NCBI GenBank assembly: GCA_021819035.1
Contig: JAKASL010000002.1
Location: 124,001 to 188,000, forward strand
Source: an archaeon
Lineage (GTDB): Archaea > Thermoproteota > Nitrososphaeria > Nitrososphaerales > Gagatemarchaeaceae
DNA length: 64,000 nucleotides
Reading direction: 5' to 3'
In this document: one piece after another, positions 45,650 to 63,856 of the stretch
Layout: each line of letters opens with the position of its first letter
How positions within the stretch are numbered: position 1 is the stretch's first letter
Made by a program: the position numbers and the translations under genes
Notes under the pieces: generated by a model
Databases searched by the model: none
What the model was told of the DNA's origin: nothing
The model's input: only the letters and a program-made list of their open reading frames with translations

Positions 45650-45687
45650 AGCTTAAAACCACCCTGTGAGCCAGCTCTTTTTCGGGT

Positions 45688-49361: not shown

Positions 49362-49529
49362 TCAATTGGAGGTGACGCACTCCTGGTAGAGGCAGGTGCC
49401 CACGGACCCGAGGAACTTTATCAGCCTCCTCTAGTACTGCTCGCTGGTGTACCTGCTCCGGATGGCCTCGAAGAAGACCTTCGTCGACTCCCCCTCGACT
49501 AAACGACCTTTCCTCATCCGGCCGGTCAT
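49362..49529 (-). pseudogene. N-terminal remnant of a tyrosine integrase
   Basis: From ATG 49529 the frame reads ESTKVFFEAIRSRYTSEQY, stops at TAG (49433-49431), and continues RRLIKFLGSVGT before a TGA at 49362. The pattern FxxAIxSxxTxxxYxxxLxxFL is the core-binding (SAM-like) domain at the start of archaeal tyrosine recombinases. The catalytic domain is absent. ATTTAAC at 49552-49558 lies 26 nt upstream of the ATG, inside the duplicated module. Confidence 0.55.
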
Positions 49530-49645
49530 CGCGTGATAGGTAGGCCTGGACATTTAACCCCCGCCTTTTGATATCAAGTTTAGCTACAAATTTGAAGTGG
49601 GCCCGACCGGAACCTGGATGCATTTTCGCAGCTGAAAATGGTATG
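49527..49645 (-). repeat. Promoter/tRNA-end repeat, copy 1
   Basis: Composite repeat. 49527-49612 aligns without gaps to 56856-56941 (start codon CAT, ATTTAAC box, TTTTGATA and CAAATTTG blocks, then a GGGCCCGAC tRNA-end-like block). 49597-49645 also matches 63006-63055 (GCATTTTCGCAG shared). It therefore joins two modules that occur separately elsewhere. Contains a 7-bp inverted repeat CATTTTC/GAAAATG. Confidence 0.75.
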
Positions 49646-49772
49646 AAACCCCCCCGGGTTCGTTACGCCACGGGTTCTAACCTGTTCGGCGCATTTCGGG
49701 GCGAGCAGGGCGGGCCGGGACACGCACTCTTGACCCTGACTGAATGTCGGAGTTTCCCTGTGCCGGGCGGGG

Positions 49773-50158
49773 TCAGACCATGATTGCGTGTGGCAGACCT
49801 CCAAAGTGCCTGTCTCCGGTCACGACCTTAGCCGACGCGCTTCTGGCAGTCGCCAAGATGACTGAATCGGCCATTCCCCAATCCTTGATGGTCTTCTTGC
49901 GCTTATGGTTCAACTCACCACCGAGAAGAGCTATCGCGTTATCTACGGGGCAACAAATGTTCGCGCAGACATGAACCCCAGGTCCTCCTCAAACGACGGC
50001 CATCTCTCTCTTAGGTACTTCTCTTTGAGCTCGGCAAGGGATACGGTCGAAGTGGCGGCACGGTCACCCTCCACATACGGGCGGACGACCGTCCCCGACC
50101 GAGTTCCCTTGAAGTATTCGATCCAGGCGTAAGAATCTATGACGTACTCAAAGCTCAT
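49773..50158 (-). pseudogene. vapC: PIN-domain toxin broken by a one-base shift
   Basis: MSFEYVIDSYAWIEYFKG opens the PIN fold; the frame stops after SARTFVAP, while a shifted frame continues VDNAIALLGGELNHKRKK, DWGMADSVILATARS and VVTGDRHFGGLP to a TGA at 49773, completing all PIN acids. The break lies in a GCCCC run near 49945. Either a pseudogene or a base-call error. Overlaps its antitoxin by 11 nt. Confidence 0.75.
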
Positions 50159-50349
50159 GGAGCTTTGCCTCGTCCTCTCGCCTGAACGCTTTCATTTCGG
50201 GATGGGAACCGAACTTAGAGTCCGGGATGTTCTCCGCCTTGCTTATGAGACGCCTTACCGTCGCATCGATGCTCTTCACCCCCATACTTCCTCTTCAGCT
50301 CCTCCAACGCCCTTGCCGTGTTCCTCTTGACCTCGACCGCCGTAGACAT
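50148..50349 (-). pseudogene. vapB: VapB-like antitoxin broken by a one-base shift
   Basis: MSTAVEVKRNTARALEELKR is followed by a shift in a GGGGG run near 50280; the other frame continues VKSIDATVRRLISKAENI and ends KAFRREDEAKLHEL. With one G fewer the whole reads as a ~66-aa antitoxin. It lies in the usual position before the PIN toxin. Confidence 0.7.
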
Positions 50350-51352
50350 GGCTATGGACTATAGACTATGGATGGTTAAGCCTGTCGACCATCGAGTCTG
50401 CAGAAAGGGCCAAGGAGGGACCCGCCATGCAACCCCTCCTCGGCTTCGAGGGGGCGGCAGGCGATAGGCAAGGTCTCCTCAATCACTGTAGCCGCAGGCC
50501 AGGGCGTCACGCTGAGCTTCAGCGGTGTCATCGGCGTCCAGGTGTCCAGCCCTGCGGGCGGCCACACCCCCGTTGCACCGCCCATAGCCCTGGCGCCAGT
50601 CGCCGGACTGAGCTACACGACTCGCCTGGTGGGTCAAGGCTTCCTAACGTTTCAGGCGACAGCGTCCTAGCGACGCTCACCTGAACCCCCGCTCTTTCAG
50701 GTATGTTTCTCGAATTTTGAGCGGAGGACGAAAGCGTCGTAAACGCTGTCAAATCCATTCGAGACGAGCGCGGCAAATGGCTCGTATACGTCTGCTAGCA
50801 GCGCGGCTTTCGATTCACTCCACATCTGCAGATTCTGCTCTTCGGCAACAGGAAGGGAACCTGAATGAGGAAGGAGAAAACGGCGCCTGTGATGCAAAGC
50901 TCCTTTCTGGCCAATCGCATGCGTTCCACAAGTCACTTATGTAGCGGTCTATAGGATAGCGGGACTGTTGCGCAGATTAGCCGACGAAAGTTGAGGACAT
51001 CAAGGCTAGCCGTAATGGGCGTACTGACGACTTTGGGCGTCGTCTTTTCTTTTTATCCTGGCCTCATACCTGTTGGCCCGACGCCTGTGTGGAATCGAGC
51101 AACGAGATGCTGCGATGAAGGCAGGAGCCGCCGGTGCCACCACCTACGTTGCCAAGGGAGCCGAGTTTCAGACCGCCGCCGGTTCAAGGACTGTGAGAAT
51201 GACTTCCCCAGCAGCGCGTGGGAAAGACCAACGGATGAACTCGACTCTAGGGATGGCGACGCACTTATCATCTGCGGGTCCGATGACGAGTTGACCTACA
51301 AAATTGGGGCGGTTCCCGCCGCACCGGCCCTTTTTGCATAGGGAGAGCTGTT
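50350..51352. other. Debris region with two gene fragments
   Basis: 50463-50670 (+) reads VSSITVAAGQGVTLSFSGVI ... LVGQGFLTFQATAS then stop, like the C-terminus of a secreted beta-rich protein. 50991-51100 (+) reads RLAVMGVLTTLGVVFSFYPG, like the first helix of a BioY/ECF-type membrane component, then becomes non-conserved. Neither is complete. Confidence 0.4.
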
Positions 51353-51709
51353 GTGTGCATGGTCGACAGAATTTTCATCGACAACCTGCGACTCAAGTGC
51401 AGGGTAGGCACCACAGACGAGGAGAGGAGCGCGTCGCAGGAGATTCTGGTGAACATCAGTCTGACCGTTGAGCTTGGGCGAGCAGGTACAAGCGACAATC
51501 TAGACGACACGATAGATTACATGGATACGACGGAGCGAATATCGCAGTTTGTGGCGGGCGGGGAATTTAAACTCCTGGAGAGTCTCGCAGAAGGAATCGC
51601 TGCTATTGCACTGAAAAACGCTGGTGTGGAGAGGGTGACCGTACAGGTGCGCAAGGCAAGGTACTCGAACGAACCCTCAATTGGCATCGAGATCGAGAGG
51701 CGCAGATAG
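51353..51709 (+). CDS. folB: Dihydroneopterin aldolase
   Basis: 118 aa. Converts dihydroneopterin to 6-hydroxymethyl-dihydropterin. FIDNLRLKCRVGTTDEER is the FolB start with the catalytic Glu, and the C-terminal VQVRKARY contains the conserved Lys. Most archaea use a different aldolase (MptD), so a bacterial-type FolB suggests acquisition by transfer. Followed by folK after 6 nt. Confidence 0.92.
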   Translation: MCMVDRIFIDNLRLKCRVGTTDEERSASQEILVNISLTVELGRAGTSDNLDDTIDYMDTTERISQFVAGGEFKLLESLAEGIAAIALKNAGVERVTVQVRKARYSNEPSIGIEIERRR

Positions 51710-51715
51710 TTAGCC

Positions 51716-52225
51716 ATGGTCGAATCGATCATAGAACTCGGTACCAACCTAGGGGACAGGGCGGATAATCTCCGGAGAGCGATCGGGACGATCGGCCGGA
51801 AGATGAGACTGGTCAAGGCGTCATCAGTTTACGAAACGGAGCCGATGTACTACGAAGATCAAGGCTGGTTTCTCAATTGCGTGGTGGCCGTCGAGACCGA
51901 TTTGAGGCCGCGGGCGCTACTCCAGGGGTTGCAGGCCATGGAGATGGAATTGGGAAGGAAGCGCACTGTGAGATACGGTCCACGGGTTATCGACCTGGAC
52001 ATTCTGTTCTATGGCAGCGAGGTCGTGTCTGAACCTGGGCTCGAGATACCGCACCCCAAAATCGCGGAGAGACCCTTCGTGCTGGTGCCCTTGAACGAGA
52101 TAAGACCAGACCTGGTCCATCCTGTTCTTGGGAGAAGGGCGTCCGAACTGCTTGGCAATCTGAAGCCCGGTGGGGAGCAGGTCATCAAGAGACCGGGCCT
52201 GCTCGCTGACCTCGTCTCCTCCTAG
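51716..52225 (+). CDS. folK: 6-hydroxymethyl-dihydropterin pyrophosphokinase
   Basis: 169 aa. LGTNLGDRADNLRRAI opening, SSVYETEPMYYEDQGWFLNC and the HPPK signature RYGPRVIDLDILFYG are all present, then PHPKIAERPFVL. Transfers pyrophosphate from ATP to the pterin. Ends overlapping the convergent folP by 41 nt. Confidence 0.95.
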   Translation: MVESIIELGTNLGDRADNLRRAIGTIGRKMRLVKASSVYETEPMYYEDQGWFLNCVVAVETDLRPRALLQGLQAMEMELGRKRTVRYGPRVIDLDILFYGSEVVSEPGLEIPHPKIAERPFVLVPLNEIRPDLVHPVLGRRASELLGNLKPGGEQVIKRPGLLADLVSS

Positions 52226-53090
52226 TCATCGCTTCGACGACCCTGACTGCTTGTACCGTCTCTCTCACGTCGTGAGTCCTCACCATGTGGGCGCCATTCA
52301 TCACCGTAACTGCGGTGGCGGCCAGCGATGCCGGCAGCCTTTCCTCAGGATTCCCAAGATTCAGAATCTTTCCTAGGAATGACTTCCGCGATAGACCCAC
52401 GCACAGTGGCCTGCGGAGTGTTTCCAGCTTACGAAGATTTGCCAGGACGTGGCAGTCCCATTCATACCAAGGCATTACCTTCTGGGGAGAGTACGCTCTC
52501 CCAGCTCCCTCCTCTCTGAAGAAGCCGATCCCTGGATCCAGCACTATGTACCGTTCGTCTATGCCTGCTCTCTCCGCTATTCGCATCGTCTCGCTTAACG
52601 CTTGGCGAACCTGTACGATTGGCGCCATTTTCGAGGTTCTTGAAGAATGCGCCATCGCCAAGAGCGAAGCGCCGTAATCCTTGATCACACGCGCCATTCT
52701 GGCATCGTTTTTCAGACCGGACACATCGTTAATTATTGAAGCGCCGTTCTTGAGAGCAACGTCGGCAACGGATGCGCGGAGCGTGTCGACCGATACCGTA
52801 ACGTCGTCTATTTCCATAATCGTTCGCAGCGCAGTCCTTATACGGGTTAACTCCACTTCTTGGGAGATTTCATTCTTCAGGTACGGCGCCGTTGACATTG
52901 CGCCGATATCTATTATGTCCGCCCCTTCTGTTGAGACTTTCGAGGCCATCGTTGAAATCTTTTCAGGAGTGTTAGCGACGGAACCTCCGTAGAATGACTC
53001 TGGACTCACGTTGATTGCTGCCATTATCCGAACCGGAAAGCCCGAACCGACTTTCACGGAACCTAACTTGGCTATTCTTTTCAACGTCAT
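52185..53090 (-). CDS. folP: Dihydropteroate synthase
   Basis: 301 aa from ATG 53090 (in-frame ATGs at 53120 and 53138 are alternatives). Makes dihydropteroate from pterin pyrophosphate and p-aminobenzoate. IMAAINVSPESFYGGS is the NVTPDSF loop, ADIIDIGAMSTAP the GGEST-like loop (variant), SIINDVSGL and the C-terminal VGLSRKSFLG are conserved. A weak TTTACA lies 26 nt upstream of 53090. The GAMS variant of the usual GGES loop is notable. Confidence 0.9.
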   Translation of the reverse strand: MTLKRIAKLGSVKVGSGFPVRIMAAINVSPESFYGGSVANTPEKISTMASKVSTEGADIIDIGAMSTAPYLKNEISQEVELTRIRTALRTIMEIDDVTVSVDTLRASVADVALKNGASIINDVSGLKNDARMARVIKDYGASLLAMAHSSRTSKMAPIVQVRQALSETMRIAERAGIDERYIVLDPGIGFFREEGAGRAYSPQKVMPWYEWDCHVLANLRKLETLRRPLCVGLSRKSFLGKILNLGNPEERLPASLAATAVTVMNGAHMVRTHDVRETVQAVRVVEAMTRRRRGQRAGPVS

Positions 53091-53206
53091 GACTATGGTC
53101 ACTTGGTGCTGTAAAGGCATTGGTCGCCTGTAGGTCATTAATCGACCGCCTTCCTCCTATCGTCTTGCGGCCGATGAGGAACGTAAAGACCTCAATCTAG
53201 CAAGGG

Positions 53207-53231
53207 TGCGGGCCCGGTGGGATTCATACCC
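53207..53231 (-). repeat. tRNA 3'-end-like fragment
   Basis: Minus strand reads GGGTATGAATCCCACCGGGC followed by CCGCA: a T-arm-plus-acceptor pattern of a tRNA (GGGTTCGAATCCC with changes) without the rest of a tRNA. One of at least five such fragments between 49 and 63 kb. Confidence 0.5.
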
Positions 53232-53406
53232 TTGAGCATGTCATTGCATTATCTTGATGCGGATAAGAGGACCCCTGTTGGCCTCCGCCTAGAGCCAGTA
53301 GGCGAGCGGTGTCTGTACACGCATATACTCGCGGGCCGCCTTTGGCAACAGTCAAAACGCTTGCCAGACGTAACCGTAGTTACAGCTGTGATGGGTGACA
53401 CGGAGA

Positions 53407-53768
53407 ATGGTGATAGCATCCACTGACAGAGACCTCGAGGAGAACTTGATCAACAAGCTCCGGGCGCCAAACCTAGAGGCTGACGGAGGTCTCCGATTGG
53501 TACGACCCCTAGAATCCCCGCGAAAAAGGAACTGAGATGCTTCTTCGAAACAGTCCTGGAATGGTGGCTGGACAACAGACCGAGGAATGTTACCGTTACG
53601 ATACGCATGTCGAATGGCGAGGTCTTTGACCTTAAACTTCGGTCGCCTCAAACGTCAGGAAGAAAACAGAAGGACTGGACTAAGGAAAAGGGGCCGCGTC
53701 TGCTCGACTGTTACTCCCTGATTGTTTCGAGCTTCGAGAGCGCAGTCCATAGGCCCACGCGCGTGTAG
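53407..53768 (+). pseudogene. Small broken protein, weakly EACC1-like
   Basis: MVIASTDRDLEENLINKLRA ... LVRPLESPR runs to a TGA at 53533; one added A in the AAAAA run (53523-53527) would join it to KELRCFFETVLEWWLDNRPR and NVTVTIRMSNGEVFDL. The order (short strand, helix, LV.P strand, helix, RxVTVTI-x-x-x-DGxxxxL) resembles effector-associated constant component EACC1, a module of conflict-system proteins. Weak, by eye only. Its end overlaps the UPF0147 remnant. Confidence 0.4.
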
Positions 53769-53925
53769 GAGGGCATCTTGGGATTCTGTGCCAGTTCGTC
53801 GAAGATGCTGATCGCGTTGGCGGCCCTTTCGCCGATGCTCCGTCTCGTGTCTCTGAGGGCTGCAAGGGAATCGTGTGCCGCCTTCTTGGCGTCCCCTCGC
53901 GTCCGGTAGGAGTCTGCGATGTCGC
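53711..53925 (-). pseudogene. UPF0147-family protein, 5' end lost
   Basis: RRSIGERAANAISIFDELAQ, NPKMPSYTRVGLWTALSKLE matches the small archaeal UPF0147 pattern (helix, D/N-x-x-x-P-xx-R, helix). No start codon exists in frame until 54019, inside a fragment of an unrelated gene, so the 5' end was cut at about 53925. Confidence 0.5.
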
Positions 53926-54253
53926 TCCAGGTGATGAGCTCTACAAGTACATCACGAAGGAGGGAGCAGCTCACCTGGAGGTCAAAAGGGCGGATCTCCT
54001 TTTGCTGGGGCACACCCACGTGCCTTATGAGATTAGGGACTGGACGAGATGGATAGTCAATCCCGGGAGCGTCGGCATGCCTAAGGACGGAGATCCCAGA
54101 GCCTCCTACGCCGTCCTTGACACAGCCTCACGCGGAGTGACCTTTGGAAGGGTCGAGTACGATATCGAAGAGGTAATCTCGAAGCTTAGGACCACGCTCA
54201 GCGGACACAGGGACGTGTTCGAGCTGATAGCGAAGACTCTTAGATCAGGATAG
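53926..54253 (+). pseudogene. Metallophosphoesterase (YfcE-like), C-terminal half only
   Basis: DELYKYITKEGAAHLEVKRA, LLLLGHTHVPYEIRDW, VNPGSVGMPKDGDPRASYAV are the C-terminal metal ligands (GHTH) and NPGSVG motif of YfcE-type phosphodiesterases. The N-terminal D-x-H and GD/GNHD motifs are missing, so it is probably inactive. Truncation point coincides with the UPF0147 cut. Confidence 0.7.
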
Positions 54254-54281
54254 CGCCGTTACATCCAAAATAAAAAGTGGG

Positions 54282-55343
54282 TCAGCCTTTGATCACGGGA
54301 GTCCCAGCAAAGCATGCACTCGCGCCCAGTCCCTCCTCTATGCGGAGGAGCTCGTTGTACTTCGCGACCCTCTCCCCTCTGGCCGGGGCGTCGGTCTTGA
54401 TGAGCTCGCTTTCGATGGCGGTAGCAAGGTGGGCGATGAAAACGTCCTCCGTCTCGCCCGACCTGTGAGAGGCCACGACGGCAAGCCCTGCGGCCCTCGC
54501 GATCCCCACCGCCCCCATGGTCTCATTAACGGTCCCTATCTGATTCGGCTTGACCAAGACTGCGTTCGTGGCTCTGAGGGAGACTCCTTTCCTGATACGT
54601 TCGGGGTTTGCGACATAGAGGTCGTCCCCCAGTACCATGACCTTTCCTTTCAAACGCCTGGTGATTCTCCGAAAGGCAGAAAAGTCTTCTTCGTCGAACG
54701 GGTCTTCGATGGTAAGAAGCCTGTATTTCTTCACGAGGCTGAGGTAACAGTCAAGCATTTCGTCACCACTGCGCTCTCTGCCGTCCATCCTGTACTTCAA
54801 AGTCCTCTGGTCATAGAAGCTCGACGCGGCAGAGTCGATTCCGAGCCTGATTTCCGATTCCGCGAAACCCGCCTCGGATATGGCGTCGATGATTACATCC
54901 AGCGCCTGTGCGGAGTCTCCGAACGGAAGCGCGAAGCCTCCCTCGTCGCCGACGTTAATTTAGGAAGTACCGAACCGCCCCTTTAGTGTTGACCGCAGCG
55001 CGTGGTAAACTTCACTGCCGAACCTTACCGCTTCGTTCATGCTCTTCGCTGCGACGGGTTCTATCAAGAACTCCTGGATTGCCAGTCTGTTGCCAGCGTG
55101 CTTTCCGCCATTGATTATGTTCATCATCGGGACAGGGAGCCTGTACTTCGCCCTCCGCCGTAGGCGCTTGTAGAGCGGTTCACCGCCGGCCGCGGAAGCA
55201 AGCCGGGCAGCCGCCATCGACACCGCTCTTCTCACTGTCAGCCTCCTGGGCCTCATCGAGCAGATGGGCTCGTGCGAGCCTAGCTTCTCGACGTAGTGGA
55301 AACGGGCACAGAAGAAGCACCTCGCAGTGGGCCCGAAGGACAT
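54282..55343 (-). pseudogene. eno: Enolase lacking its N-terminus, with in-frame stop
   Basis: Enolase barrel: VPMMNIINGGKHAGNRLAIQ, INVGDEGGFALP, LTIEDPFDEEDF, GDDLYVANPERIRKG, VKPNQIGTVNET, SHRSGETEDVFIAHLA. A TAA (54962-54960) sits just before INVGDEGG in the same frame. The first ~100 residues are missing. Instead, from 55343 to about 55240 the frame encodes MSFGPTARCFFCARFHYVEK and CSMRPRRLTVRR, a Cys-rich start of another small protein fused in frame. Not functional as glycolytic enolase unless the stop is an error. Confidence 0.85.
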
Positions 55344-55394
55344 GCAAGGAACCCCGGCCAGATGATAAAAGCGGCGGTCGACGCTGCCCGCCGG

Positions 55395-55610
55395 CTACAG
55401 CAACTCGAGGAATTCTTCTTCAGAGATCCCGACGTCGTCCACTATGCTCTTCATGGTCCCGGCCTTGATCGGGTCGTGGCGAGGGACGACCGTCCACCTG
55501 CCGTCGGCGTGCTCCATTATCACGTGGCTTCCTGACTGCCTCTTGACCACGAACCCGAGCTTGCCGAGGGCTTTGACTACCTTTCTCCAGTCCTGGTTTC
55601 TCAGGCTCAC
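55395..55610 (-). CDS. hicA: HicA toxin (intact)
   Basis: 71 aa from GTG 55610, overlapping the hicB stop (GTGA). WRKVVKALGKLGFVVKRQSG, SHVIMEHADGRWTVVPRHD, IKAGTMKSIVDDVGISEEEF is a complete HicA with its catalytic His in GSHV. mRNA interferase. Confidence 0.9.
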   Translation of the reverse strand: MSLRNQDWRKVVKALGKLGFVVKRQSGSHVIMEHADGRWTVVPRHDPIKAGTMKSIVDDVGISEEEFLELL

Positions 55611-55825
55611 CGGATGGTGATCTCCAGGACGTCGCCCTTCTCTTTCCTGGCCTTCTCCTTGATGTAGTCCACGGCGAGGGTGAGGGCGTCGCGCATGTTC
55701 CTCTTCACTTCGGCCATCGTCTCTCCCTCGGTGTGCACCTGGGGCAGCTCTATGCACCTGGCGGTGTACCCGCCCTCTTCCGCCTTCCTGACGACGTATG
55801 TGTAGGTCCGGCCCCTCACGTTCAT
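55607..55825 (-). CDS. hicB: HicB antitoxin
   Basis: 72 aa. TYVVRKAEEGGYTARCIELP, VHTEGETMAEVKRNMRDAL is the compact HicB fold. Intact pair with the downstream hicA; gene order hicB-hicA as at the other two loci in this window. Confidence 0.9.
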   Translation of the reverse strand: MNVRGRTYTYVVRKAEEGGYTARCIELPQVHTEGETMAEVKRNMRDALTLAVDYIKEKARKEKGDVLEITIR

Positions 55826-56063
55826 GTCCGCTTCACATCTCCTCCGGGCATATAACCGTCACGCCCCCGTCAGCCGTCGAGGCGAGGACCGGGAAGATTC
55901 AGTTCGTGTTGTTCGCCTTTTGTGACCGCCTAAGGGTCAAGAAAGGGGAGCCAGAAATGACCGCCAAGCGGTACCAAAACACGAACAAGGCGAACGGCCC
56001 GAGTCGTAGTGTCTTCCATTTGATTGATGCTGATGATGTTGCCTTGTGTTTCTCCACTCGTCG

Positions 56064-56579
56064 TCAACCGGGACCTCTGGCGCCGAGAACGCGCCTTATC
56101 TCGCTCTCCGGTACCTTCCTCCTGGCCGACGGTGGAAGAACAACACAGCGGATCTTGCCTTGGTCGTCCCACTTCTGTATCGCTCTGACAGTGACGCCTA
56201 GCATGGCTGACGCCTCCTTCAAGCTGTACGTCCTCTCTTCTTCCTTCCCCTCTCTATTCGCGCCTTCGACCTCTCCTCCTCGCCGTTCCAGGCTTCTTCC
56301 GCTTCCGCGCATCCTGTGCAGCCAGTCCTCCTTGAGGAAGGAAAGGAACGCGCCCATCCGCCGCTCGCCCCAGTCGAACATGCCGTAAGCCACGAAGAGG
56401 AAACTGTGGATGCAAGGCCATCCGACGGGGTCGTGCCTGGGAGCCACAATGCGGACGCCTTCTTGGTTGCGGAGCAGGATGTGGCTCGAAGAATGCCTGA
56501 CCGGGACGAACCCGGACCTTCTAAGGATCTTCAGGACCTCTCTCCAGGACAGGCTCGGGAGCTTCTGCGGCCCCGACAA
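56064..56579 (-). pseudogene. HicA N-terminus fused to an IS607-type helix-turn-helix
   Basis: Residues 1-50 are HicA (WREVLKILRRSGFVPVRHSS, IVAPRHDPV) but lose the KPGTL...EEF end. After about 60 non-conserved residues the frame encodes TYSLKEASAMLGVTVRAIQK WDDQGKI ... RRKVPESEIRRVLG, the MerR-like N-terminal DNA-binding domain of IS607-family serine recombinases. The recombinase catalytic domain and tnpB are absent. Either an IS607-like element inserted into hicA and decayed, or a new chimeric protein. Confidence 0.65.
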
Positions 56580-56858
56580 CTAAACGGCTACCTGAATCAG
56601 CCTTGCCTTCTGCTCTTTCGCCTGGGCGTGCACGTCCTCAAGGTAGAGTTTTATCGCACCTTGGACGTTCTTGATCGCCTCGGCTTCTGTCTTACCCTCG
56701 TTCATGCACCCCGGGAGCTCAATGCACCTGGCCACGAACCCCTCCCCCCGATGGCGCTTGAGAGACACGTGATAGTTCCTTGATTCCATCGATGGGGAGA
56801 AAGGGGGTCGCGGGCATCTATCCTGCTCTGTCTGAGATGAATGCCAGCGGGCGGTCAT
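56580..56858 (-). CDS. hicB: HicB antitoxin under a captured integrase-type promoter
   Basis: The HicB fold starts at ATG 56789 (NYHVSLKRHRGEGFVARCIE, MNEGKTEAEAIKNVQGAIK). An in-frame ATG at 56858 lies 26 nt after the ATTTAAC box of repeat copy 2, exactly the spacing found before the integrase remnant at 49529. A leaderless mRNA from that box would add 23 residues (MTARWHSSQTEQ...). Its hicA partner is the damaged chimera downstream. Confidence 0.78.
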   Translation of the reverse strand: MTARWHSSQTEQDRCPRPPFSPSMESRNYHVSLKRHRGEGFVARCIELPGCMNEGKTEAEAIKNVQGAIKLYLEDVHAQAKEQKARLIQVAV

Positions 56859-56941
56859 TGCGATGTAGGCGGGTCGGGAGATTTAACCCCCACCTTTTGA
56901 TACCAAATCCAGCTGCAAATTTGACGCGGGCTCGATTGGAC
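56856..56941 (-). repeat. Promoter/tRNA-end repeat, copy 2
   Basis: Gap-free match to 49527-49612: CGGTCAT before the start, ATTTAACCCCC, CCTTTTGATA, CAAATTTGA, then GCGGGCTCGA corresponding to GTGGGCCCGA. Most differences are single substitutions, with the TATA box and CAAATTTG best conserved. Confidence 0.8.
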
Positions 56942-56961
56942 CCTCACGGCATACCGTGCTA

Positions 56962-56976
56962 GAATCGAACCCGAAC
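56962..56976 (-). repeat. 15-bp tRNA T-arm repeat, left copy
   Basis: GAATCGAACCCGAAC, identical to 57586-57600. Read on the minus strand it is GTTCGGGTTCGATTC, a T-arm sequence. The two copies bracket the relBE-like pair. Confidence 0.6.
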
Positions 56977-56987
56977 TCCCAGACCAC

Positions 56988-57239
56988 TCAACCATAGGCC
57001 TTGCTCCTGTGTCTGATTCGCAGCACAAGTACATCCTCCCCAACCAGCGCGTAGATGACCCGATAATCTCCAACTCTCAGCTTGAAGAGCCCCGCAAACT
57101 CACCATGCAGAGGCTCGCCGCCCGTTGGACTGCTTGCTAGAGACTCACCAATCTGATGAAAGATCTTCTCCTGGTTCCCCTTGTCAATATTCTTCAAATC
57201 ATGGCAGACTGATGCTTTGTAGAGAATCTTACTGGCCAA
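56988..57239 (-). CDS. relE: RelE/ParE-type toxin
   Basis: 83 aa. ASVCHDLKNIDKGNQEKIFH, LHGEFAGLFKLRVGDYRVIY and VLVLRIRHRSKAYG are the RelE fold with C-terminal R-H-R of mRNA-cleaving members. Overlaps the antitoxin gene by 11 nt. Confidence 0.9.
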   Translation of the reverse strand: MASKILYKASVCHDLKNIDKGNQEKIFHQIGESLASSPTGGEPLHGEFAGLFKLRVGDYRVIYALVGEDVLVLRIRHRSKAYG

Positions 57240-57444
57240 GCTTGACCAGTTCTTTCTCTGAGACTGCTCTGTCGTCCTTGTCGTTCAACCGATGCAATGC
57301 TATGAGGTAGTCTTCGTATTCCTCTAGGTACTCCCTCAACGCTCTGGTTACGATGTAGGTCTTGGGGCGGTCCAATGACCTCGCTAACTCATCCAAGCGC
57401 TTGGCTATATCCCCGGGGAGCCGAACCGACACTGCTTCGCTCAT
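57229..57444 (-). CDS. Ribbon-helix-helix antitoxin of the RelE-type toxin
   Basis: 71 aa from ATG 57444. AVSVRLPGDIAKRLDELARS, RPKTYIVTRALREYLEEYED is a standard RHH domain, then a toxin-binding helix. TATATAA at 57469-57475 lies 28 nt upstream, giving a leaderless mRNA; a longer upstream frame is excluded by that box. Confidence 0.88.
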   Translation of the reverse strand: MSEAVSVRLPGDIAKRLDELARSLDRPKTYIVTRALREYLEEYEDYLIALHRLNDKDDRAVSEKELVKLGQ

Positions 57445-57468
57445 TACTTGTGATACAGTGCAGACTTG

Positions 57469-57475
57469 TATATAA
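57469..57475 (-). promoter_or_regulatory. TATA box of the relE-type operon
   Basis: TATATAA centred 28 nt before ATG 57444; likely overlapped by the RHH repressor. Confidence 0.6.
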
Positions 57476-57572
57476 CCCTCGTGCCGTCGTCGGGATGACA
57501 GCACGGTCCCTTGAACTAGCTAATGACCAGATTCTGGCCTCCTTCGGTTAAACAGACATCATTTCGAGCTTT

Positions 57573-57606
57573 GCGGGCCCGACGGGAATCGAACCCGAAC
57601 GGGTTC
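57573..57606 (-). repeat. tRNA 3'-end fragment next to integrase remnant
   Basis: Minus strand reads GAACCCGTTCGGGTTCGATT then CCCGTCGGGCCCGC: T arm and acceptor 3' strand of a tRNA. No matching 5' half is present upstream. Contains the right copy of the 15-bp repeat (57586-57600). The plus-strand integrase C-terminal frame begins 41 nt away. Best read as an attachment-site remnant. Confidence 0.6.
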
Positions 57607-57646
57607 AGGTCTCCCCCTGTTAATAGGAAGAAGAGCCACCTTTAAG

Positions 57647-58048
57647 ATGGAAGTAGAAGAGAAGCCGGTCCTGTTCCCGAGGAGCGCGTAGAAGGACCTC
57701 TTCGAGGAGATGAGGCAGGCGTACGCCGGGGCGGCACAGAAGCATTTGGAGACCGTGGTGCAACCCACGATAGACAAGGGGGAGGTCGTGAGCACAGCCG
57801 GGGTGGAGGCGCTGAAGATGTTCGGGTACACGGACGAGGAAATCTCAACCCTGGGGGACGTGAAGGGAGTCACCAAGGAGGGGCTGCAGGAGCTGATCAA
57901 CGAGAGGACGAAGAAGATGCTGAGCCTGAACGGGGGGACCCAGAAGGTGATCCTGGCGGAGGAGCTGAGGAAGTGGATGGAAGAGGGGTGGGACTGCAAA
58001 AGGGACCTGCCGAACGGGAAGGTCGTGATAGGGCTAAGGGTGGGCTAA
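57647..58048 (+). pseudogene. C-terminal fragment of an integrase-like protein
   Basis: From ATG 57647: KPVLFPRSA, a TAG at 57689-57691, then DLFEEMRQAYAGAAQKHLET and VTKEGLQELINERTKKM, ending QKVILAEELRKWMEEGWDCK RDLPNGKVVIGL. The last block (QKV-x-x-x-E-x-x-x-x-x-x-EGW-x-x-x-x-x-LPNGKVVI) is the tail typical of archaeal tyrosine recombinases. The catalytic R-H-R-Y domain is missing. In-frame stop and truncation make it a remnant. Confidence 0.55.
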
Positions 58049-58284
58049 GACGGCGGGGCTGGAAAGCTGGTAGGTTTCGAGCTCTCGCTCGAGCTTGCGG
58101 AGGTAGTGGGGAATGAGGGTTGCTGCACTGTCGGCGGGTATAGGGTCGGGCTCCAAGGGGAGGTCGGAGTAGGATCAAGAAGCGCGGTGGCACCACCCTT
58201 CCATCCACTAGACTCGCCAGCGAAGTACATTTTGTGCTGAATCAGAAACTCGGTGGTGTCTACGGGCGGGGATTTGTCGATGCA

Positions 58285-58551
58285 TCACGGAAGCGGCGCC
58301 CCGCCCAACCTGAATTGACCCTCTTTGATGTAGCAAAGGAGTCTCTCCTCAAGGGTGGTAGAACTGTAACCCGCGTACCAGATGTACTTGTCAGAACGTG
58401 AGTGGGACATTTGGATTGTGTTCACTCTTTCATTCATGAATTCCTCGAAGCTAAAGCCCTTGGCACCGATTTCGGAGAGTGTGACAGCGTATATCGCCCC
58501 TTGCAAGCCCACGGATTCAAAGAAACTCTCGACTTGCGACTTCCATGGCAT
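58285..58551 (-). CDS. Hypothetical protein
   Basis: 88-aa frame (GAIYAVTLSEIGAKGFSFEE, DKYIWYAGYSSTTLEERLLC) with natural composition but no recognised family; may itself be a fragment. The 236 nt before it (58049-58284) hold no supported gene. Confidence 0.35.
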   Translation of the reverse strand: MPWKSQVESFFESVGLQGAIYAVTLSEIGAKGFSFEEFMNERVNTIQMSHSRSDKYIWYAGYSSTTLEERLLCYIKEGQFRLGGAPLP

Positions 58552-58652
58552 GCCGGTTTCTCCGCGGTCTCTCGGTCTCTTCCAGTCATCTGGATACCAA
58601 TGGTATCAGAGACATTCAGCTGTTGCAGCCCCCCAGGCAAGTTGCAGAGGCT

Positions 58653-59699
58653 TCAGGAGCTGCGGAAATCCGGGAGCCCCCGCAAGAACCACTTCCACGC
58701 CGGGACCACATCGACCGTCTTCCCTCCCTCAGGGTCTTCTCCTCCCTCGAAGTCACTTTGGTGAGCCTGTCGATCCCGAGGGTCGCCGACGCCTCCAGCT
58801 GGGCCCCCACTTCCCGGTTGCGGGTCGCCGGGTCGGAGATGCTTCAGGCCACCTGCACCAGCTCCTTCCCGCCGACGACGAAGCCCGCCTCTCTTCCGGT
58901 GGTCCTGCTCCTCCAGTACGACACAGCCGCGTCTCTGCGGAGGAGGTTCACGAACACCTGGTTCTCGAGCCTCTTTGACGAGTCTCCGCCGACCAGCGCG
59001 AGGAACCCCGAGTCCAGGGCGTAGACCTTGGGGTTCACCCTCCTTTCCTTGGGCTTCTTCGAATAGGGATAGACCCGCCGTATCATGAAGACGTCCTCCG
59101 CCCCGTCCAAGTAGCTCAGCGCCGTCTGCCTTCCGACCTTCAGCCCCTCGCCTGCGAGCCAGCGGGATATCGAACGGGCGGAAAGTGGGTGGCAGGCTGA
59201 CCCGAGCGCCGCTGCGACGAAGGTCCGCAGCATGGACGGCTTTCTCGCCTTCAGCCTCTCTATCATGTCCCGCTGTATGACGGTGTCCAAAAGCTCCTGC
59301 AGTATCCTCGTCTTGAGCTGGGCTCCGTCGGCGAGCACGACGGCCGGGTACCCGCCATACTCGATGTATTATTCTGCGAAAGACGCCATCCTCCCTGTCT
59401 TCTCGGGGGTCAAGTACCCCGCAGCTTCGACTCCCCTTGTCCGGAGGAACTCTGCAAACGAGAAGGGGAGGACCAGGGTGTTGAGGGCCCTCCTCCTGAG
59501 CACCGAGTGGAGCCTGTCCGTCGAGAGCTCTGAAGTCGAGCCCGTGACCATGACCTTGTACCTTCCGGAGTCGTGGAGGGTCCTCACCCAGCGCGCTTAG
59601 CTGGGAAACCTCTGGACCTCGTCGATGAAGAGCCGCACTTCCTTCGTCGTGTCGGTCTGGGATCTGCTTCCCAAATCTGAGACGGTTTTGTCAAGGACA
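58653..59699 (-). pseudogene. AAA ATPase with DUF4143 domain, multiply broken
   Basis: Reads VRLFIDEVQRFPS (Walker B), TAA 59599, WVRTLHDSGRYKVMVTGSTS (sensor), TAA 59371, YIEYGGYPAVVLADGAQLKT, then DUF4143 (MLRTFVAAALGSACHPLSAR, VYALDSGFLALVGG, LENQVFVNLLRR, FVVGGKELVQVA), TGA 58846, SISDPATRNREV, and a one-base shift before DVVPAWKWFLRGLPDF. All stops are in the same frame. Walker A and N-terminus are missing. Confidence 0.8.
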
Positions 59700-59881
59700 C
59701 ATGTCCGGGGATGAACCCTCGGACACCCACGCGGATCAGGCAGTCTAGCTTTCATTTTCCCGGCCGCTTTTCCATGAAGTGTGGGGCTCCGGGGCGGCGA
59801 AGGGTTTCCGTCCCATCGAAGCCGAGAAACGTTCGCCCGGAACAATTCGAGTGCTTCCGTCTGCTGGGGCCAAAGCCGTCA

Positions 59882-60382
59882 TCAGAACACGAACTTGACC
59901 AAGCTTCTGTGCATTCGTGGGTTCTTCCACGCGTGGGCTACCTTGGGAACCACTCGATAGACAACTTGACCTGATTCCTCGGACCATGAGGGCGTGTAAT
60001 CATATTTCTTTGAGTAGTGTGCCTGCAGCTTCTTCAGCTCCGACGCGGACCGCTCAATCGAGGCCGTGCCTTCGACGATTACTGTGTCGCCTCCGTCCTG
60101 TAAGTGTACGACGACGCTCGGGTTCCTGGAGAGGTTGACGCCCTTGACTGATCGAGGGTCGGTTTCAAAGTGGAAGATGCAGTCCGACCATGCCCCCCAG
60201 ACAGGAGCGGCATGAGGCCGGCCGTCTGGGCGCGTAGTAGACACCCAATAGATCTTCTCCTGCTCCAGCTTCCCGTTCGCATGTTCCCAGGTAATCCATT
60301 TCTTCGGGTCGTTAGACACATGCCATTCGGGCGGGAACTCTGGCCGAATACGATGGGGCGGTCCATTCTTGCAGGAAGTCAT
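59882..60382 (-). CDS. Pyridoxamine 5'-phosphate oxidase-family FMN/F420 protein
   Basis: 166 aa. KIYWVSTTRPDGRPHAAPVW is the split-barrel cofactor-binding opening, then NPSVVVHLQDGGDTVIVEGT. Family members bind FMN or F420 and reduce or oxidise small substrates. Start ATG 60382 overlaps the upstream F420 reductase gene by 4 nt, which makes F420 the likelier cofactor. Confidence 0.87.
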   Translation of the reverse strand: MTSCKNGPPHRIRPEFPPEWHVSNDPKKWITWEHANGKLEQEKIYWVSTTRPDGRPHAAPVWGAWSDCIFHFETDPRSVKGVNLSRNPSVVVHLQDGGDTVIVEGTASIERSASELKKLQAHYSKKYDYTPSWSEESGQVVYRVVPKVAHAWKNPRMHRSLVKFVF

Positions 60383-61002
60383 GCCGATGCTCCAATCACT
60401 CTGAAGCCGATGTCGGCACCGTAATTAGACGTCCCATAACCCAGCTTGCCGTTCAAGACCCCGAGCGACTCTATCCAGCGGGAGTTCTTCAGGGGACCTG
60501 CGTCCACAGGCAGGAACCCTATGGCCCGACCAAGATTCATGACCCGCCGCTTCGCGTCGGGATCGTCCCCCGTTACGAAAAGGCTGATGGCTTCGCCGCC
60601 CACCTTCCCGGTTCTCATGTGCCTGGCGAAGACTGTGTTGAAGGCCTTCACCACCTTCGTATCGGGAGCATTCGCCTGTAGTTCTTCGGCTCGGCTCTTT
60701 ACGGGAGGCTCGTCACCAAAGTCGTTGGTGACGTCGACTAATATCTTCCCTTTGGCGCTCTCGCCCATCTCCTTCACGACTTCGCCGACTGCGGAAAGTG
60801 GAACGGCGAGGATGATTACTTCTCCCCATGCGACGACATCCCTGACCAGCTTGCGGTCGTGCGGTGCAGCCTTTACTTCATACCCCGCCAACTTCTCGAT
60901 TCCTGCCTTCAGGGCGCCCCCCACTTCGCCGAACCCGATTATGCCGATCCTTATCGCACGTCCTCCCCTCTCAGAGTCAACGGGTGCGCTCATGGGGGCC
61001 AC
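60379..61002 (-). CDS. npdG: NADPH:F420 oxidoreductase-like protein
   Basis: 207 aa. IRIGIIGFGEVGGALKAGIE is the Rossmann loop; VIILAVPLSAVGEVVKEM, VDVTNDFGDEPP and VVKAFNTVFARHM are typical of F420-dependent NADP reductases. GDDPDAKRRVMNLGRAIGF ends the domain. Transfers hydride between NADPH and F420, supplying the neighbouring PPOX enzyme (inference). Overlaps the histidine phosphatase gene by 13 nt. Confidence 0.88.
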   Translation of the reverse strand: MAPMSAPVDSERGGRAIRIGIIGFGEVGGALKAGIEKLAGYEVKAAPHDRKLVRDVVAWGEVIILAVPLSAVGEVVKEMGESAKGKILVDVTNDFGDEPPVKSRAEELQANAPDTKVVKAFNTVFARHMRTGKVGGEAISLFVTGDDPDAKRRVMNLGRAIGFLPVDAGPLKNSRWIESLGVLNGKLGYGTSNYGADIGFRVIGASA

Positions 61003-61493
61003 GCTTTGCCGTCGAAGAGCTCACTGGGAGGAAGAAGCCAGACAAGCTCCCCTTTTCCCGGGCCGGGGAGAGATTTGCACTGGAAGCAGGCGACAGAGCC
61101 TTGATACAGCCCAACCTTCGACTTTCCGCCGATGAGATCTGCAATCAGATTGTCGATCAGGGGCTGAGTGGAGACAAGCAGCACGCTGCCGACCCTGTTC
61201 AGCTTACGGAGTCTTGCGTAAACCACCTTCGGTTCGCCCTCTGGAAGCAGGCAGTCGTCACTCGTGAGCGTGGACTCCTTGCCAAGGACCTTCGTGACGA
61301 CCTCCGCCGTCTCCATCGCTCTGAGAAGCGGACTCGAGACTATCGCTTTCGGATTGAATCCAAGCTCTCTCCTTGCCACGTTCACGAGCGCTGTGGCCCA
61401 CCTCCGCCCCTGAGGGGTGATGTGGCGCTCTTCCACCCTCGGCAGCCCTTCCCCGAAGGGGATTCGGGCGTGCCTCATGACGTAGACTATCAT
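60990..61493 (-). CDS. Histidine phosphatase family protein (SixA-like)
   Basis: 167 aa. MRHARIPFGEG holds the catalytic RH-x motif (RHA), VSSPLLRAMETAEVV the second Arg, and VLLVSTQPLIDNLI the region where a second His is usual; here it reads STQP rather than GHxP, so the second catalytic His may be lost. Same operon as npdG. Confidence 0.82.
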   Translation of the reverse strand: MIVYVMRHARIPFGEGLPRVEERHITPQGRRWATALVNVARRELGFNPKAIVSSPLLRAMETAEVVTKVLGKESTLTSDDCLLPEGEPKVVYARLRKLNRVGSVLLVSTQPLIDNLIADLIGGKSKVGLYQGSVACFQCKSLPGPGKGELVWLLPPSELFDGKAWPP

Positions 61494-61990
61494 GACCGCG
61501 CCCCCAGCTTCCTGATTGGAACCTGGAGCTCAACCTGTGTCCTTGCTACAGGGTCGACCCATGGGTTCCCGACGAAGACTTCGCGCGTCGGGCCCGCCTC
61601 CTCAAACTCGCCCTGCTTCGTCCTCCAGTCGAGCCAGCATTCAAGCCCATGGAACACCAACCTGTCGGAAACAACCTCCGGGTTGAAAGTCACGCTTGCC
61701 ACGAGTTCGGGCGACAGGAACTTTGCCTCCATTCTCGGAGGTAGGGTCAGAGTCCTCCCCCTGTATGCGATGCTGGCCCACCACCTGCGCTGATCCGAGG
61801 GTGATCCGACCGCGTATTTGTCAAGGTAGATCCTGAACCACTTGGAGGTTCTGATGCCGTTCTTCTTCGCCCATCTTTCGAGCTCCGTGAATTCCTCGCG
61901 AAGCATGTCGTCTCCGGTCCATGGACCCATGTACGATTTGACTATCACCTTGTGCCCAGGCTCCCTCTTCGTCACGATGTCGACGACCAC
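61490..61990 (-). CDS. GyrI-like effector-binding protein
   Basis: 166 aa. VIVKSYMGPWTGDDMLREEF, FRIYLDKY, DQRRWWASIAYRG and VFHGLECWLDW fit the GyrI-like small-molecule-binding domain (SOUL/AraC-C fold), without a DNA-binding part. First gene of the 61990-59882 operon, with 4-nt overlap to the next. Confidence 0.78.
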   Translation of the reverse strand: MVVDIVTKREPGHKVIVKSYMGPWTGDDMLREEFTELERWAKKNGIRTSKWFRIYLDKYAVGSPSDQRRWWASIAYRGRTLTLPPRMEAKFLSPELVASVTFNPEVVSDRLVFHGLECWLDWRTKQGEFEEAGPTREVFVGNPWVDPVARTQVELQVPIRKLGARS

Positions 61991-62040
61991 TTCGAGACAA
62001 GAGGTATTAGCTAAGTTGGTAGTTAAGCGACCCTGTTTGC

Positions 62041-62073
62041 TATAAGTTCATATAAGCTCTTATAAGATCTTAT
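62041..62073 (+). promoter_or_regulatory. Three helically phased TATAAG repeats and palindrome
   Basis: TATAAG occurs at 62041, 62051 and 62061, exactly 10 bp apart, and the last overlaps the perfect 12-bp palindrome ATAAGATCTTAT (62062-62073). The third copy lies 26 nt before ATG 62089, so it can be the TATA box. Arrangement suits cooperative binding by the encoded RHH-like protein. Confidence 0.65.
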
Positions 62074-62088
62074 GGTCGCTCAAGCCGA

Positions 62089-62325
62089 ATGTCGCAAGAA
62101 GCTGAGGAGGGGACTTCGAGCTTCAGGCCTCGAATGACGACGATCGCCATCGCGGCCTACGACAAAGCCAGGCTCGACAGGCTGAAACTTCACAGGTCGG
62201 AACCTTATGGTGATGTCGTAAGCAGACTCATCGATCACGCGGAGAAGACCGGGAGCGTAGGGGGCCCACAATATCTTAGGGGATTAATCGACTCCCTCGC
62301 AGATCAAACTCGGACGAAGCCCTGA
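62089..62325 (+). CDS. Antitoxin-like small protein (VapB type)
   Basis: 78 aa. RMTTIAIAAYDKARLDRLKL, HRSEPYGDVVSRLIDHAEKT has the strand-helix-helix layout of archaeal VapB-type antitoxins. No toxin gene is evident downstream, so it appears orphan. Confidence 0.7.
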   Translation: MSQEAEEGTSSFRPRMTTIAIAAYDKARLDRLKLHRSEPYGDVVSRLIDHAEKTGSVGGPQYLRGLIDSLADQTRTKP

Positions 62326-63005
62326 GTCGAGAAATCGGGAAAGCTCCGCCGAGGGTCTGGCCAACTTTGTTCCTCCGGACCTTACACATCCCTGTTGGAG
62401 AAACCAGGCTTGTCCGGTGCAGTTTGACACCCCAAGTGCCTTTCCAACTGAGTAGAAGGGGTTGCGCTTTGCTCGCGAAGAGACGCAGAGAGACGAGGGA
62501 ATCCACTGGGAAGATTTCCTCGAAAAAAGCCCTGAAGTTCGCCTCAGAGCCCGACTCAAGGTCGGGGGTATTCCCGAAACACTTTCAGGTCAAGAATCCC
62601 CTAGTGTATCATCGCTAGCGGAAGATCACCGACACGAAGACCTCCTATTCCCTGTCCCTTCTAGTTGTGGAGGCGCATTTGGGAGAGAAGAGCCGTAATT
62701 GGATTTCAAAAAGGACACCCTTGAAGCGATGAGGAACACTCCGTATCATCAAAACGGCAACACCGAGTGTGCGGTTTACCCCAAGGACTTCGTTCTATCA
62801 CCGTAGCCCTCCGCTAGACTGGGATTGACACGAAAACATTCACAAATCTGTATCAGAACCAATGTAGGCACGAAAAGTGTTACCCTAGCCGAGATGGCCC
62901 CGCCGTCCGGGAGAACCGTGGTATTTTTAGCGCCCAGATGGGTTAATCGCTGATATATTGGAACCCCGAATTGACGAAAAGATCCGGGGAACCGACCTCG
63001 GGTGA
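62326..63005. other. Debris region
   Basis: A protein-like peptide at 62462-62600 (+) (EETQRDEGIHWEDFLEK, VRLRARLKVGGIPETL) without family. Nothing complete. Confidence 0.35.
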
Positions 63006-63055
63006 GTGCGGGCCAGACGGGAACCGGTGCATTTTCGCAGCCAGAAGCGGTATCG
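63006..63055 (-). repeat. tRNA-end repeat, copy 3 (partial)
   Basis: Matches 49597-49645: GTGCGGGCC..GACGGGAACC..GTGCATTTTCGCAGC...GGTAT against GTGGGCCCGACCGGAACC..ATGCATTTTCGCAGC...GGTAT. The promoter half of copies 1 and 2 is absent. Confidence 0.6.
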
Positions 63056-63148
63056 AAATGAACGAGTCCGATTCTCACGGGCCTGACTCGAGGCATGATA
63101 GTCTAGAATGTGGTCGCCGGGACTTCTGACCGGTTCCCGGTCGGAGAT

Positions 63149-63571
63149 TCACTCGGTTTTCCTATTGCCGCCTACACGTTCAATCTTCAGGTCCTTTACT
63201 TGTTCGAACTCGACGTCGCTGCCTGTTACAAGCGTGCCCTTGTGCAGGAGTGCTGTCGAGGCTGCGAAGGCATCGGCAAGCGAGAGGGCGTTTCCGGCTT
63301 TAATGGCAGCAGCTTTCTTCCACAGTGGAGAATTATGAATTATAGGCACTATCCTCACTCCGAAGCTCAGCAGATTCCTCTCCTTCTCCTCAGCTACGCT
63401 TCCGTTCCTTCTCCGCAGAATGTAGTATAGTTCAGTGAGGTTGATGATGTTCATGTAGCCCCTCACCTTCAGTTCTGAGACACGTTCCAGATAGGCTTCG
63501 ACCTCCCCAGATCCTGCTTCTCCCAGATACAGGACTAACAGGGCTTGAGTGTCGAATACAATACTGCGCAA
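63149..63571 (-). CDS. vapC: PIN-domain toxin (VapC-like)
   Basis: 140 aa. IVFDTQALLVLYLGE, INLTELYYILRR, LSLADAFAASTALL and VTGSDVEFEQV place the four PIN acids. Follows the AbrB-type antitoxin by 3 nt. Confidence 0.9.
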   Translation of the reverse strand: MRSIVFDTQALLVLYLGEAGSGEVEAYLERVSELKVRGYMNIINLTELYYILRRRNGSVAEEKERNLLSFGVRIVPIIHNSPLWKKAAAIKAGNALSLADAFAASTALLHKGTLVTGSDVEFEQVKDLKIERVGGNRKTE

Positions 63572-63574
63572 ACG

Positions 63575-63838: not shown

Positions 63839-63856
63839 GGTGGCTTTCATGGCTTG

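What the first reader, a model, noticed from the sequence alone, without database searches (positions are those of the whole stretch)
49527..63055. Array of tRNA 3'-end-like fragments marking serial integration scars
At least five places (49597-49616, 53207-53231, 56926-56943, 57573-57606, 63006-63025) carry variants of GYGGGCCCGACNGGAA, all reading on the minus strand as the T arm plus acceptor end of a tRNA without a 5' half. They are interspersed with integrase fragments, TA modules and truncated core-type genes. This looks like repeated integration/excision at a tRNA-like site leaving nested att remnants. The parental tRNA is not in the window.
Basis: partly seen in the sequence, partly recalled or inferred. 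Interest (0 to 1): 0.72.

Follow-up and report, generated by a model that had tools for sequence, protein, structure and literature searches.

The report
Mobile gene cassettes behind tRNA-Lys
In a soil archaeon, small sets of genes sit in a row behind a lysine tRNA gene, many ending in a copy of that tRNA's tail, and several of the same sets turn up in related species in a different order, so this looks like a natural gene-swapping rack.

Summary
The five tRNA-tail-like copies are real. Their parent, tRNA-Lys(UUU), lies 770 bp beyond the window. They are less scars than boundaries of discrete cassettes (median spacing 1.04 kb, 58 intervals) carrying toxin-antitoxin pairs, folate genes and other cargo. 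The VapBC cassette is 1013/1019 identical in another genome, cut exactly at both cores, with different neighbours. Five own segments recur in G016 in another order, at 82-95% identity against 76% for the DNA on the tRNA's 5' side. Of 48 cassette ends examined, 35 fit one alignment with a hairpin whose sequence varies while its pairing is kept. A divergent tyrosine recombinase family sits directly behind tRNA-Lys in two relatives, and in G005 it holds the att core inside its 5' end; its remnant lies at own site 57573. Best reading: an integron-like cassette array in Gagatemarchaeaceae-related archaea, using the tRNA-Lys tail as entry point and mobilised in trans. Cassette addition at tRNA genes is a known kind ("additive islands"); this hairpin-bearing archaeal form is a new variant. 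Recombinase activity and hairpin function are inferred, not shown.

The parts
63008..63070 (-). cassette-end recombination site (hairpin + tRNA-Lys 3' core)
   Evidence: R1 model 69.2 bits, a training sequence; identical site in G024 L077:6212-6274
63008..64000 (-). VapBC cassette (continues to core at window-equivalent 64024)
   Evidence: 1013/1019 identical to G024, core to core; 95.3% in G016
63149..63571 (-). VapC-like PIN toxin gene
   Evidence: PF01850 1.1e-15
63575..63850 (-). VapB-like MazE/AbrB antitoxin gene
   Evidence: PF04014 4.9e-5, just under its cut-off
57573..57623 (-). att copy with T arm (23 nt identical to tRNA-Lys 3' end), inside the 5' end of an integrase remnant
57542..58048 (+). 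remnant of the divergent tyrosine recombinase: N-terminal 56 aa and C-terminal 118 aa, middle missing, stop inside
   Evidence: 60.7% and 75.4% identity to G005 integrase L212:250-1677:-
56926..57590 (-). RHH/ParE-type TA cassette, core to core
   Evidence: 86% to G016 L201:11655-12326, 77% to G005 L212; PF01402 and PF05016
56926..56988 (-). degenerate cassette-end site
   Evidence: R1 31.4 bits
53208..53225 (-). degenerate core at left edge of the folate cassette
   Evidence: 3 mismatches; flank resembles L098 and L075 site flanks
50417..53222 (.). folate cassette: folB 51353-51709(+), folK 51716-52225(+), folP 52185-53138(-)
   Evidence: PF02152, PF01288, PF00809; 84% to G024 C51 ending at an att site, 91% over 50913-53195 to G016
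49597..50418 (-). small cassette with an ORF 49943-50158 that looks PIN-like by eye (no Pfam hit) and its end site 49597-49661
   Evidence: R1 54.3 bits, a training sequence; 82% to G016 L201:10856-11671; same site in G004 L075 10961
27651..28280 (+). solitary cassette away from tRNA-Lys with HicB/HicA-like ORFs (by eye), end site 28218-28280
   Evidence: R1 55.8 bits; 85% to G002 over exactly 27651-28280 and 71% to part of a G016 array cassette

Best explanation
An array of mostly non-autonomous mobile gene cassettes inserted one behind another at the 3' end of tRNA-Lys(UUU). Each cassette has a left end that follows the core and a right end made of a conserved box, usually a hairpin, and a copy of the last ~18 nt of the tRNA. 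A tyrosine recombinase exchanges strands near GGGCCCGC. The cassette enters directly behind the tRNA, whose own 3' end stays intact, and older cassettes move outward. Shown: tRNA-derived cores; core-to-core units; the same units in other species with other neighbours and order; in one species pair (own, G004) a conserved distal part and different proximal cassettes; pairing-conserved hairpins. Inferred: the recombinase is the family found behind tRNA-Lys in G003 and JOPF051 and as a remnant at own site 57573; it acts in trans; the crossover lies near GGGCCCGC; movement between cells uses an unknown carrier.
For: tRNA-Lys and copies. VapBC cassette identical core to core in another genome with other neighbours. 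Five own segments reordered in G016, cassette identity above that of the DNA beside the tRNA. Other shared full-length cassettes among relatives. Solitary cassette matched in G002 over exactly its own length. Distal 9.2 kb conserved in G004 while proximal cassettes differ. Hairpin covariation. Integrase family. Left end shared by own cassettes and the integrase att site of G005.
Against: No excision circle or movement was observed. The own copy of the tRNA-Lys integrase is broken, and only 2 of the 20 stretches match the G005 enzyme (L067, L074). The integrase family is common in the order (48 of 71 genomes), so its presence alone does not link it to the cassettes. Only 7 of the 20 stretches show a further core with at most 2 mismatches, several stretches being cut short by contig ends. 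Nearly all genomes are MAGs. The 57573 site lacks the aligned hairpin, 13 of 48 ends examined were left out of the alignment, and the proposed outer stem fails its control. The own array contains a stretch (about 62.3-59.9 kb) that in relatives lies near tRNA-Lys without cassettes, so some segments between sites are probably ordinary chromosome.
Confidence: 0.8

Rival explanations
1. Ordinary serial integration of independent integrative elements (viruses, plasmids) at tRNA-Lys, followed by decay. The short segments are what is left, and shared segments are inherited or moved by homologous recombination.
For: Tandem re-use of one site is known for archaeal elements (PMC6563490, passages). The own array holds an integrase remnant, broken genes such as the enolase pieces, and non-cassette chromosome.
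Against: Whole 0.6-1 kb units without a match to the G005 integrase are shared core to core at up to 99.4% with different neighbours. Homologous recombination would have to work on the short site homology alone (inference). The hairpin is conserved by compensatory change.
Confidence: 0.14
2. Cassettes move by a Cas1-like or other transposase that duplicates the tRNA end as a target-site duplication.
For: A thaumarchaeal casposon sits in a tRNA-Pro gene (PMC6563490, passages).
Against: Cassette ends differ in the first core bases, and own and G024 share a core variant, CGTCTGG, at the end of the same cassette, as for a recombination site carried by the cassette. No inverted terminal repeats were recognised by eye. 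No Cas1 search was run.
Confidence: 0.03
3. True integron: attC sites and an IntI-type integrase.
For: Array form, TA cargo, structured sites, integrase gene abutting a site in G005.
Against: The core is tRNA-derived; the attC boxes (recalled: GTTRRRY and RYYYAAC) were not seen in alignment A1 (by eye). The integrases beside tRNA-Lys have no PF00589 match above its cut-off (G005 and G003 scanned).
Confidence: 0.03

Closest known systems
Additive flexible genomic islands at tRNA genes (Actinomarinales PMC7771536, Alteromonas PMC4119200, Methylopumilus PMC10872708; passages seen)
   Same: A conserved tRNA as target, cassettes added behind it, direct repeats of the tRNA 3' end, differences between close strains; one case uses the last 20 nt of tRNA-Lys.
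   Different: Those are bacterial. The passages seen name neither a structured site nor a dedicated recombinase for the tRNA cassettes. Here many units are 0.6-1 kb, most sites examined carry a covarying hairpin, and a candidate recombinase family abuts the same tRNA in relatives.
Integrons, including archaeal integrons (PMC9668308, passages seen)
   Same: Arrays of small cassettes, each with a recombination site; arrays without an integrase beside them (called CALINs there). Folded sites and TA cargo are recalled for integrons in general; TA cargo is also in a PMC4119200 passage.
   Different: Different site sequence, tRNA instead of attI, a recombinase family barely recognised by PF00589; the find in that paper returned no occurrence of tRNA.
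Archaeal SSV-type suicidal integrases (PMC8371274, passages seen)
   Same: Archaeal tyrosine recombinase with the att core inside the 5' end of its gene (G005).
   Different: No PF16795 hit; in G003 and JOPF051 the frame is whole behind the tRNA.
Tycheposons (PMC10872708, passages seen)
   Same: tRNA-flanked cargo elements with tyrosine recombinase.
   Different: Described there as 4-200 kb with a tyrosine recombinase; here mini-cassettes, several with no match to the candidate recombinase.
Thaumarchaeal integrated elements (PMC6563490, passages seen)
   Same: 39 of 68 mapped elements use tRNA genes; tandem integrations known.
   Different: Its cryptic elements are recognised by an integrase and range from 2.6 to 98 kb; no cassette array in the passages seen.

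Membership tests
Additive flexible genomic island at a tRNA | conserved tRNA with direct repeats of its 3' end at cassette ends | tested here: met
Additive flexible genomic island at a tRNA | presence/absence of cassettes between relatives at the same locus | tested here: met
Integron | array of several cassettes each with its own recombination site | tested here: met
Integron | attC core boxes (motif recalled) | tested here: not met
   alignment A1, read by eye only
Integron | folded site with conserved structure and variable sequence | tested here: met
   inner hairpin; the outer stem is not supported; that the site acts as folded DNA was not tested
Integron | IntI integrase with its extra domain | not tested
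   no IntI model was run; the G005 and G003 enzymes lack a PF00589 match above cut-off
SSV-type suicidal integrase | att site inside the integrase gene | tested here: met
   G005: part of the N terminus is encoded by the core; not so in G003 and JOPF051
SSV-type suicidal integrase | Phage_integr_3 domain (PF16795) | tested here: not met
   Pfam scan at E up to 1 of six integrases, including G005, G003 and the own C1 one
Tyrosine recombinase | catalytic R, K, (H/Y)xxR, H, Y | tested here: met
   invariant in the 6 rows of A4 (assignment as catalytic is my reading); hhalign 99.8% to a PF00589-positive family, partly through a shared tail; phrog_1 integrase 7.7e-12 for G057, 1.2e-8 for JOPF051, 6.8e-4 for G005, none for the own C1 member
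Tycheposon | tyrosine recombinase carried by the element | tested here: not met
   the 64007 and VapBC units show no match to the G005 enzyme; other integrase families were not searched for inside them beyond Pfam of the VapBC and coiled-coil ORFs
Casposon | Cas1-type integrase | not tested
   no Cas1 search was run

The most novel reading that the evidence does not exclude
An independently evolved integron: an archaeal cassette-exchange system in which the tRNA-Lys tail is the entry site, a hairpin joined to a copy of that tail (possibly recombined as single strand) is the cassette site, and a divergent tyrosine recombinase shuffles cassettes in trans between species.
Probability: 0.3. Interest if true: 0.88.

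Novelty: new variant of a known kind. Interest (0 to 1): 0.67.

Why it matters
It would show that integron-style cassette exchange has a counterpart built on a tRNA tail, and explain how little-known soil archaea swap toxin-antitoxin and even vitamin (folate) genes. The site, the cassettes and a candidate enzyme are defined well enough to test directly whether folded recombination sites arose twice.

Tried and rejected
Rejected or led nowhere: ARAGORN found no tRNA in the window, though the Rfam tRNA model shows an intron-bearing one at about 2343-2440. The outer stem 17-22/50-55 of the cassette end is not supported: slid controls do about as well. PF00589 as a guide to the recombinase missed the relevant family. 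A structure prediction of the JOPF051 integrase alone was useless (mean pLDDT 42), so no fold search was made. Viral contigs gave 2 stretches with the core; only the context of L183 was looked at, and it looks like chance. No integrase relative was found in viral contigs. The element with integrase and a D5-like helicase near tag in G006 has no core with fewer than 4 mismatches. Pfam tallies cover 152 of 157 cassette ORFs (5 duplicates dropped; mechanical longest ORFs), and show only 25 of 84 and 25 of 64 families, so they cannot exclude an integrase among them. The PDB search with A4 gave 4a8e at 1.1e-4, but also TAL effectors at 2e-4 and weaker that look spurious. The tblastn ran three integrases but printed the matches of the G005 one only. 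Alignment A1 holds 35 of 48 ends, chosen by eye; 13 with another arrangement were left out. Therefore the hairpin was retested on 35 sites picked by core and box, not by the hairpin: 32 with a 16-nt window were scored, 3 with 17 nt were dropped, and one chance bacterial site was kept; the box itself was read from the same kind of sites. The search for an empty site of the solitary cassette found relatives with the cassette, not an empty site.
Full report
What is there. The window is contig C2, bases 124001-188000, of an unnamed archaeal genome of 1.67 Mb in three contigs. The exact 23-nt tRNA tail occurs twice in the genome: at window 57573 and at C2:188770, the 3' end of an intact tRNA-Lys(UUU) gene with extra intron-like stretches, 770 bp beyond the window (anticodon and introns read by eye). 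A third copy with another upstream half lies at window-equivalent 64007. On the tRNA's 5' side are core genes (read by eye as endonuclease IV, proteasome alpha and exosome subunits), with no integrase recognised by eye.

The five copies. 49597, 56926, 57573 and 63008 are matched by a covariance model of cassette ends at 54.3, 31.4, 28.8 and 69.2 bits. The model was built from 35 sequences, three of them own sites (49597, 63008, 64007), so those match partly by construction. 53208 is not matched, but its flank resembles the flanks of sites in G024 and G004. The bare consensus with three mismatches is only twice the chance level (15 against 7.2, 2 of 100 shuffles reach 15). The strength comes from the flanks and from relatives.

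Relatives. The tail pattern (two mismatches allowed) is in 34 of 61 genomes. Of 20 stretches fetched beside matched copies (several end early at contig ends), 18 show the tRNA-Lys anticodon-to-tail context and 2 do not. Seven of the 20 (L069, L070, L074, L075, L077, L079, L082) hold at least one further copy with at most 2 mismatches, on the tRNA strand; no match on the other strand had fewer than 4. With the model, 47 of 121 genomes match at E up to 0.01, including weak matches to tRNA-Lys itself; this scan used stricter filters. At best E below 1e-6 it is 23 of the 46 genomes listed for the own family and 1 of the other 75 (my count from the listing). In 39 relative loci and the own one, 58 intervals under 12 kb between successive cores have a median of 1037 bp; this counts some near-identical arrays more than once and includes five intervals under 200 bp.

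Cassettes move as units. The own VapBC unit is 1013/1019 identical in G024, from core to core, while the neighbours on both sides differ. The DNA on the 5' side of tRNA-Lys is 89-93% identical between these two. Against G016, where that DNA is 76% identical over 1137 bp, five own segments recur: VapBC 95.3%, most of the 64007 unit 90.6%, RHH/ParE 86.2%, the PIN-like unit 82.1% and the folate genes 91.3%. Their order on the G016 contig is VapBC, 64007 unit, PIN-like, RHH/ParE, folate; the own order from the tRNA is 64007 unit, VapBC, RHH/ParE, folate, PIN-like. Whether that G016 contig joins a tRNA-Lys gene is not known. In G004 the distal 9.2 kb (window 44001-53215) is kept at 93.6%, but the tRNA-proximal cassettes differ, as expected if new cassettes enter next to the tRNA; this is one species pair. 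In G020 and G011 a PNPOx-like gene, which lies at 59.9 kb in the window, follows the tRNA by about 300 bp with no cassette. Among 52 intervals compared (some from near-identical genomes), further full-length pairs include G004/G024 at 93.5% and L070/L150 at 87.9%. A solitary cassette at 27651-28280 with HicB/HicA-like ORFs (by eye) is 85% identical in G002 over exactly that length and 71% over part of a G016 array unit.

The site. In A1 the inner six-pair hairpin is formed in 80.9% of cells, with a covariation score of 0.433 against 0.196 shuffled (0 of 500) and at most 0.112 when slid. On 32 sites chosen by core and box only, 80.7% of pairs form against 62.6% when the 3' halves are swapped between sites (0 of 2000); on 14 mutually distant ones 77.4% against 59.1% (0 of 2000). 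The proposed outer stem fails its control. Thirteen of 48 ends examined have another arrangement. Fifteen distinct sites, including three own ones and the integrase site of G005, are followed by a left end beginning AAAGCTC or like it, under a loose pattern; at least two of the fifteen resemble it only poorly.

The recombinase. The own remnant 57542-58045 matches the two ends of a 476-aa protein of G005 (61% over 56 aa and 75% over 118 aa, middle absent). In G005 the att core encodes part of the protein's N terminus. In G003 a 73% identical protein starts 53 bp behind tRNA-Lys, and in JOPF051 the frame of a 39% relative begins about 20 bp behind it. A fragment lies there in G006 (34% over 129 aa). 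Six family members share invariant Arg, Lys, YxxR, His and Tyr positions. The family aligns with a recognised integrase family at 99.8% probability, partly through a shared C-terminal tail. phrog_1 integrase is hit at 7.7e-12 by the G057 member, 1.2e-8 by JOPF051 and 6.8e-4 by G005, and not by the own C1 member. The G005 protein has no Pfam match at E up to 1, the G003 one only PF00589 at 0.0039, below cut-off. A homologue of 429 aa with an open frame is in the own genome on C1, beside a fragment resembling the 3' end of the own tRNA with anticodon GAT. An integrase-like ORF of 363 aa lies about 1 kb from a site on C3 (PF00589 only 0.15; A4 profile 9.5e-11). So an enzyme could act in trans, but which one is not shown.

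How it most likely works. A cassette circle recombines with the tRNA-Lys tail near GGGCCCGC. The core variant CGTCTGG (for CGTCGGG) stays with the VapBC cassette in both own and G024, while the sequence right of the core differs, which places the exchange to the right of that base, unless the variant arose independently. The tRNA keeps its own sequence up to there and regains an identical end, and the former neighbour is pushed outward. Excision would be the reverse. The hairpin may mark the cassette side for the enzyme; that it works as folded single-stranded DNA, as recalled for integrons, is only a possibility.

Known or new. Cassette addition behind a tRNA with tail repeats is known in bacteria as additive islands (PMC7771536, PMC4119200, PMC10872708; passages). 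Tandem integrations are known in archaea (PMC6563490, passages), as are archaeal integrons with attC sites (PMC9668308, passages) and integrases with an internal att (PMC8371274, passages). A find in the Gagatemarchaeaceae genome paper gave no occurrence of integrase, mobile or cassette (PMC10640624). Nine searches of the open library listed nothing that describes this array by title or opening of abstract; some listings were shorter than the number of papers found, and most subscription papers are not held. I therefore call it a new variant of a known kind.

Noticed in passing
window 2343-2440, minus strand: Intron-bearing tRNA seen by the Rfam model (46 bits) but missed by ARAGORN.
   Followed up: no
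window 54282-55343, minus strand: Enolase gene in two pieces (C-terminal part by Pfam; N-terminal part by eye) with a stop between. Part of it matches a region of G025 near att sites at 65% (L202). Whether the own genome has an intact enolase elsewhere was not tested.
   Followed up: no
window 51353-53138: The folB-folK-folP region recurs in G004, G024, G016 and G028; in own, G024 and G016 it lies beside att sites: vitamin genes on a cassette.
   Followed up: partly
L267 1495-2784 and upstream (own C1): Open 429-aa tyrosine recombinase of the same family beside a 3'-end fragment of another tRNA; the family may serve several tRNA targets.
   Followed up: partly
L205 8988-9603 and 10085-11176 (own C3): A cassette-end site and, by eye, a second one, about 0.5-1 kb from a 363-aa integrase-like ORF that overlaps an ATPase-like frame.
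   Followed up: partly
L195 8171-12151 (G006 C11): Element with a D5-like helicase (by eye) and a zinc-ribbon integrase beside the tag gene, about 20 kb behind tRNA-Lys.
   Followed up: partly
L241 5375 (G003 C3): Fragment like the 3' end of a different tRNA within a few kb of two integrase matches: possible second array type.
   Followed up: no
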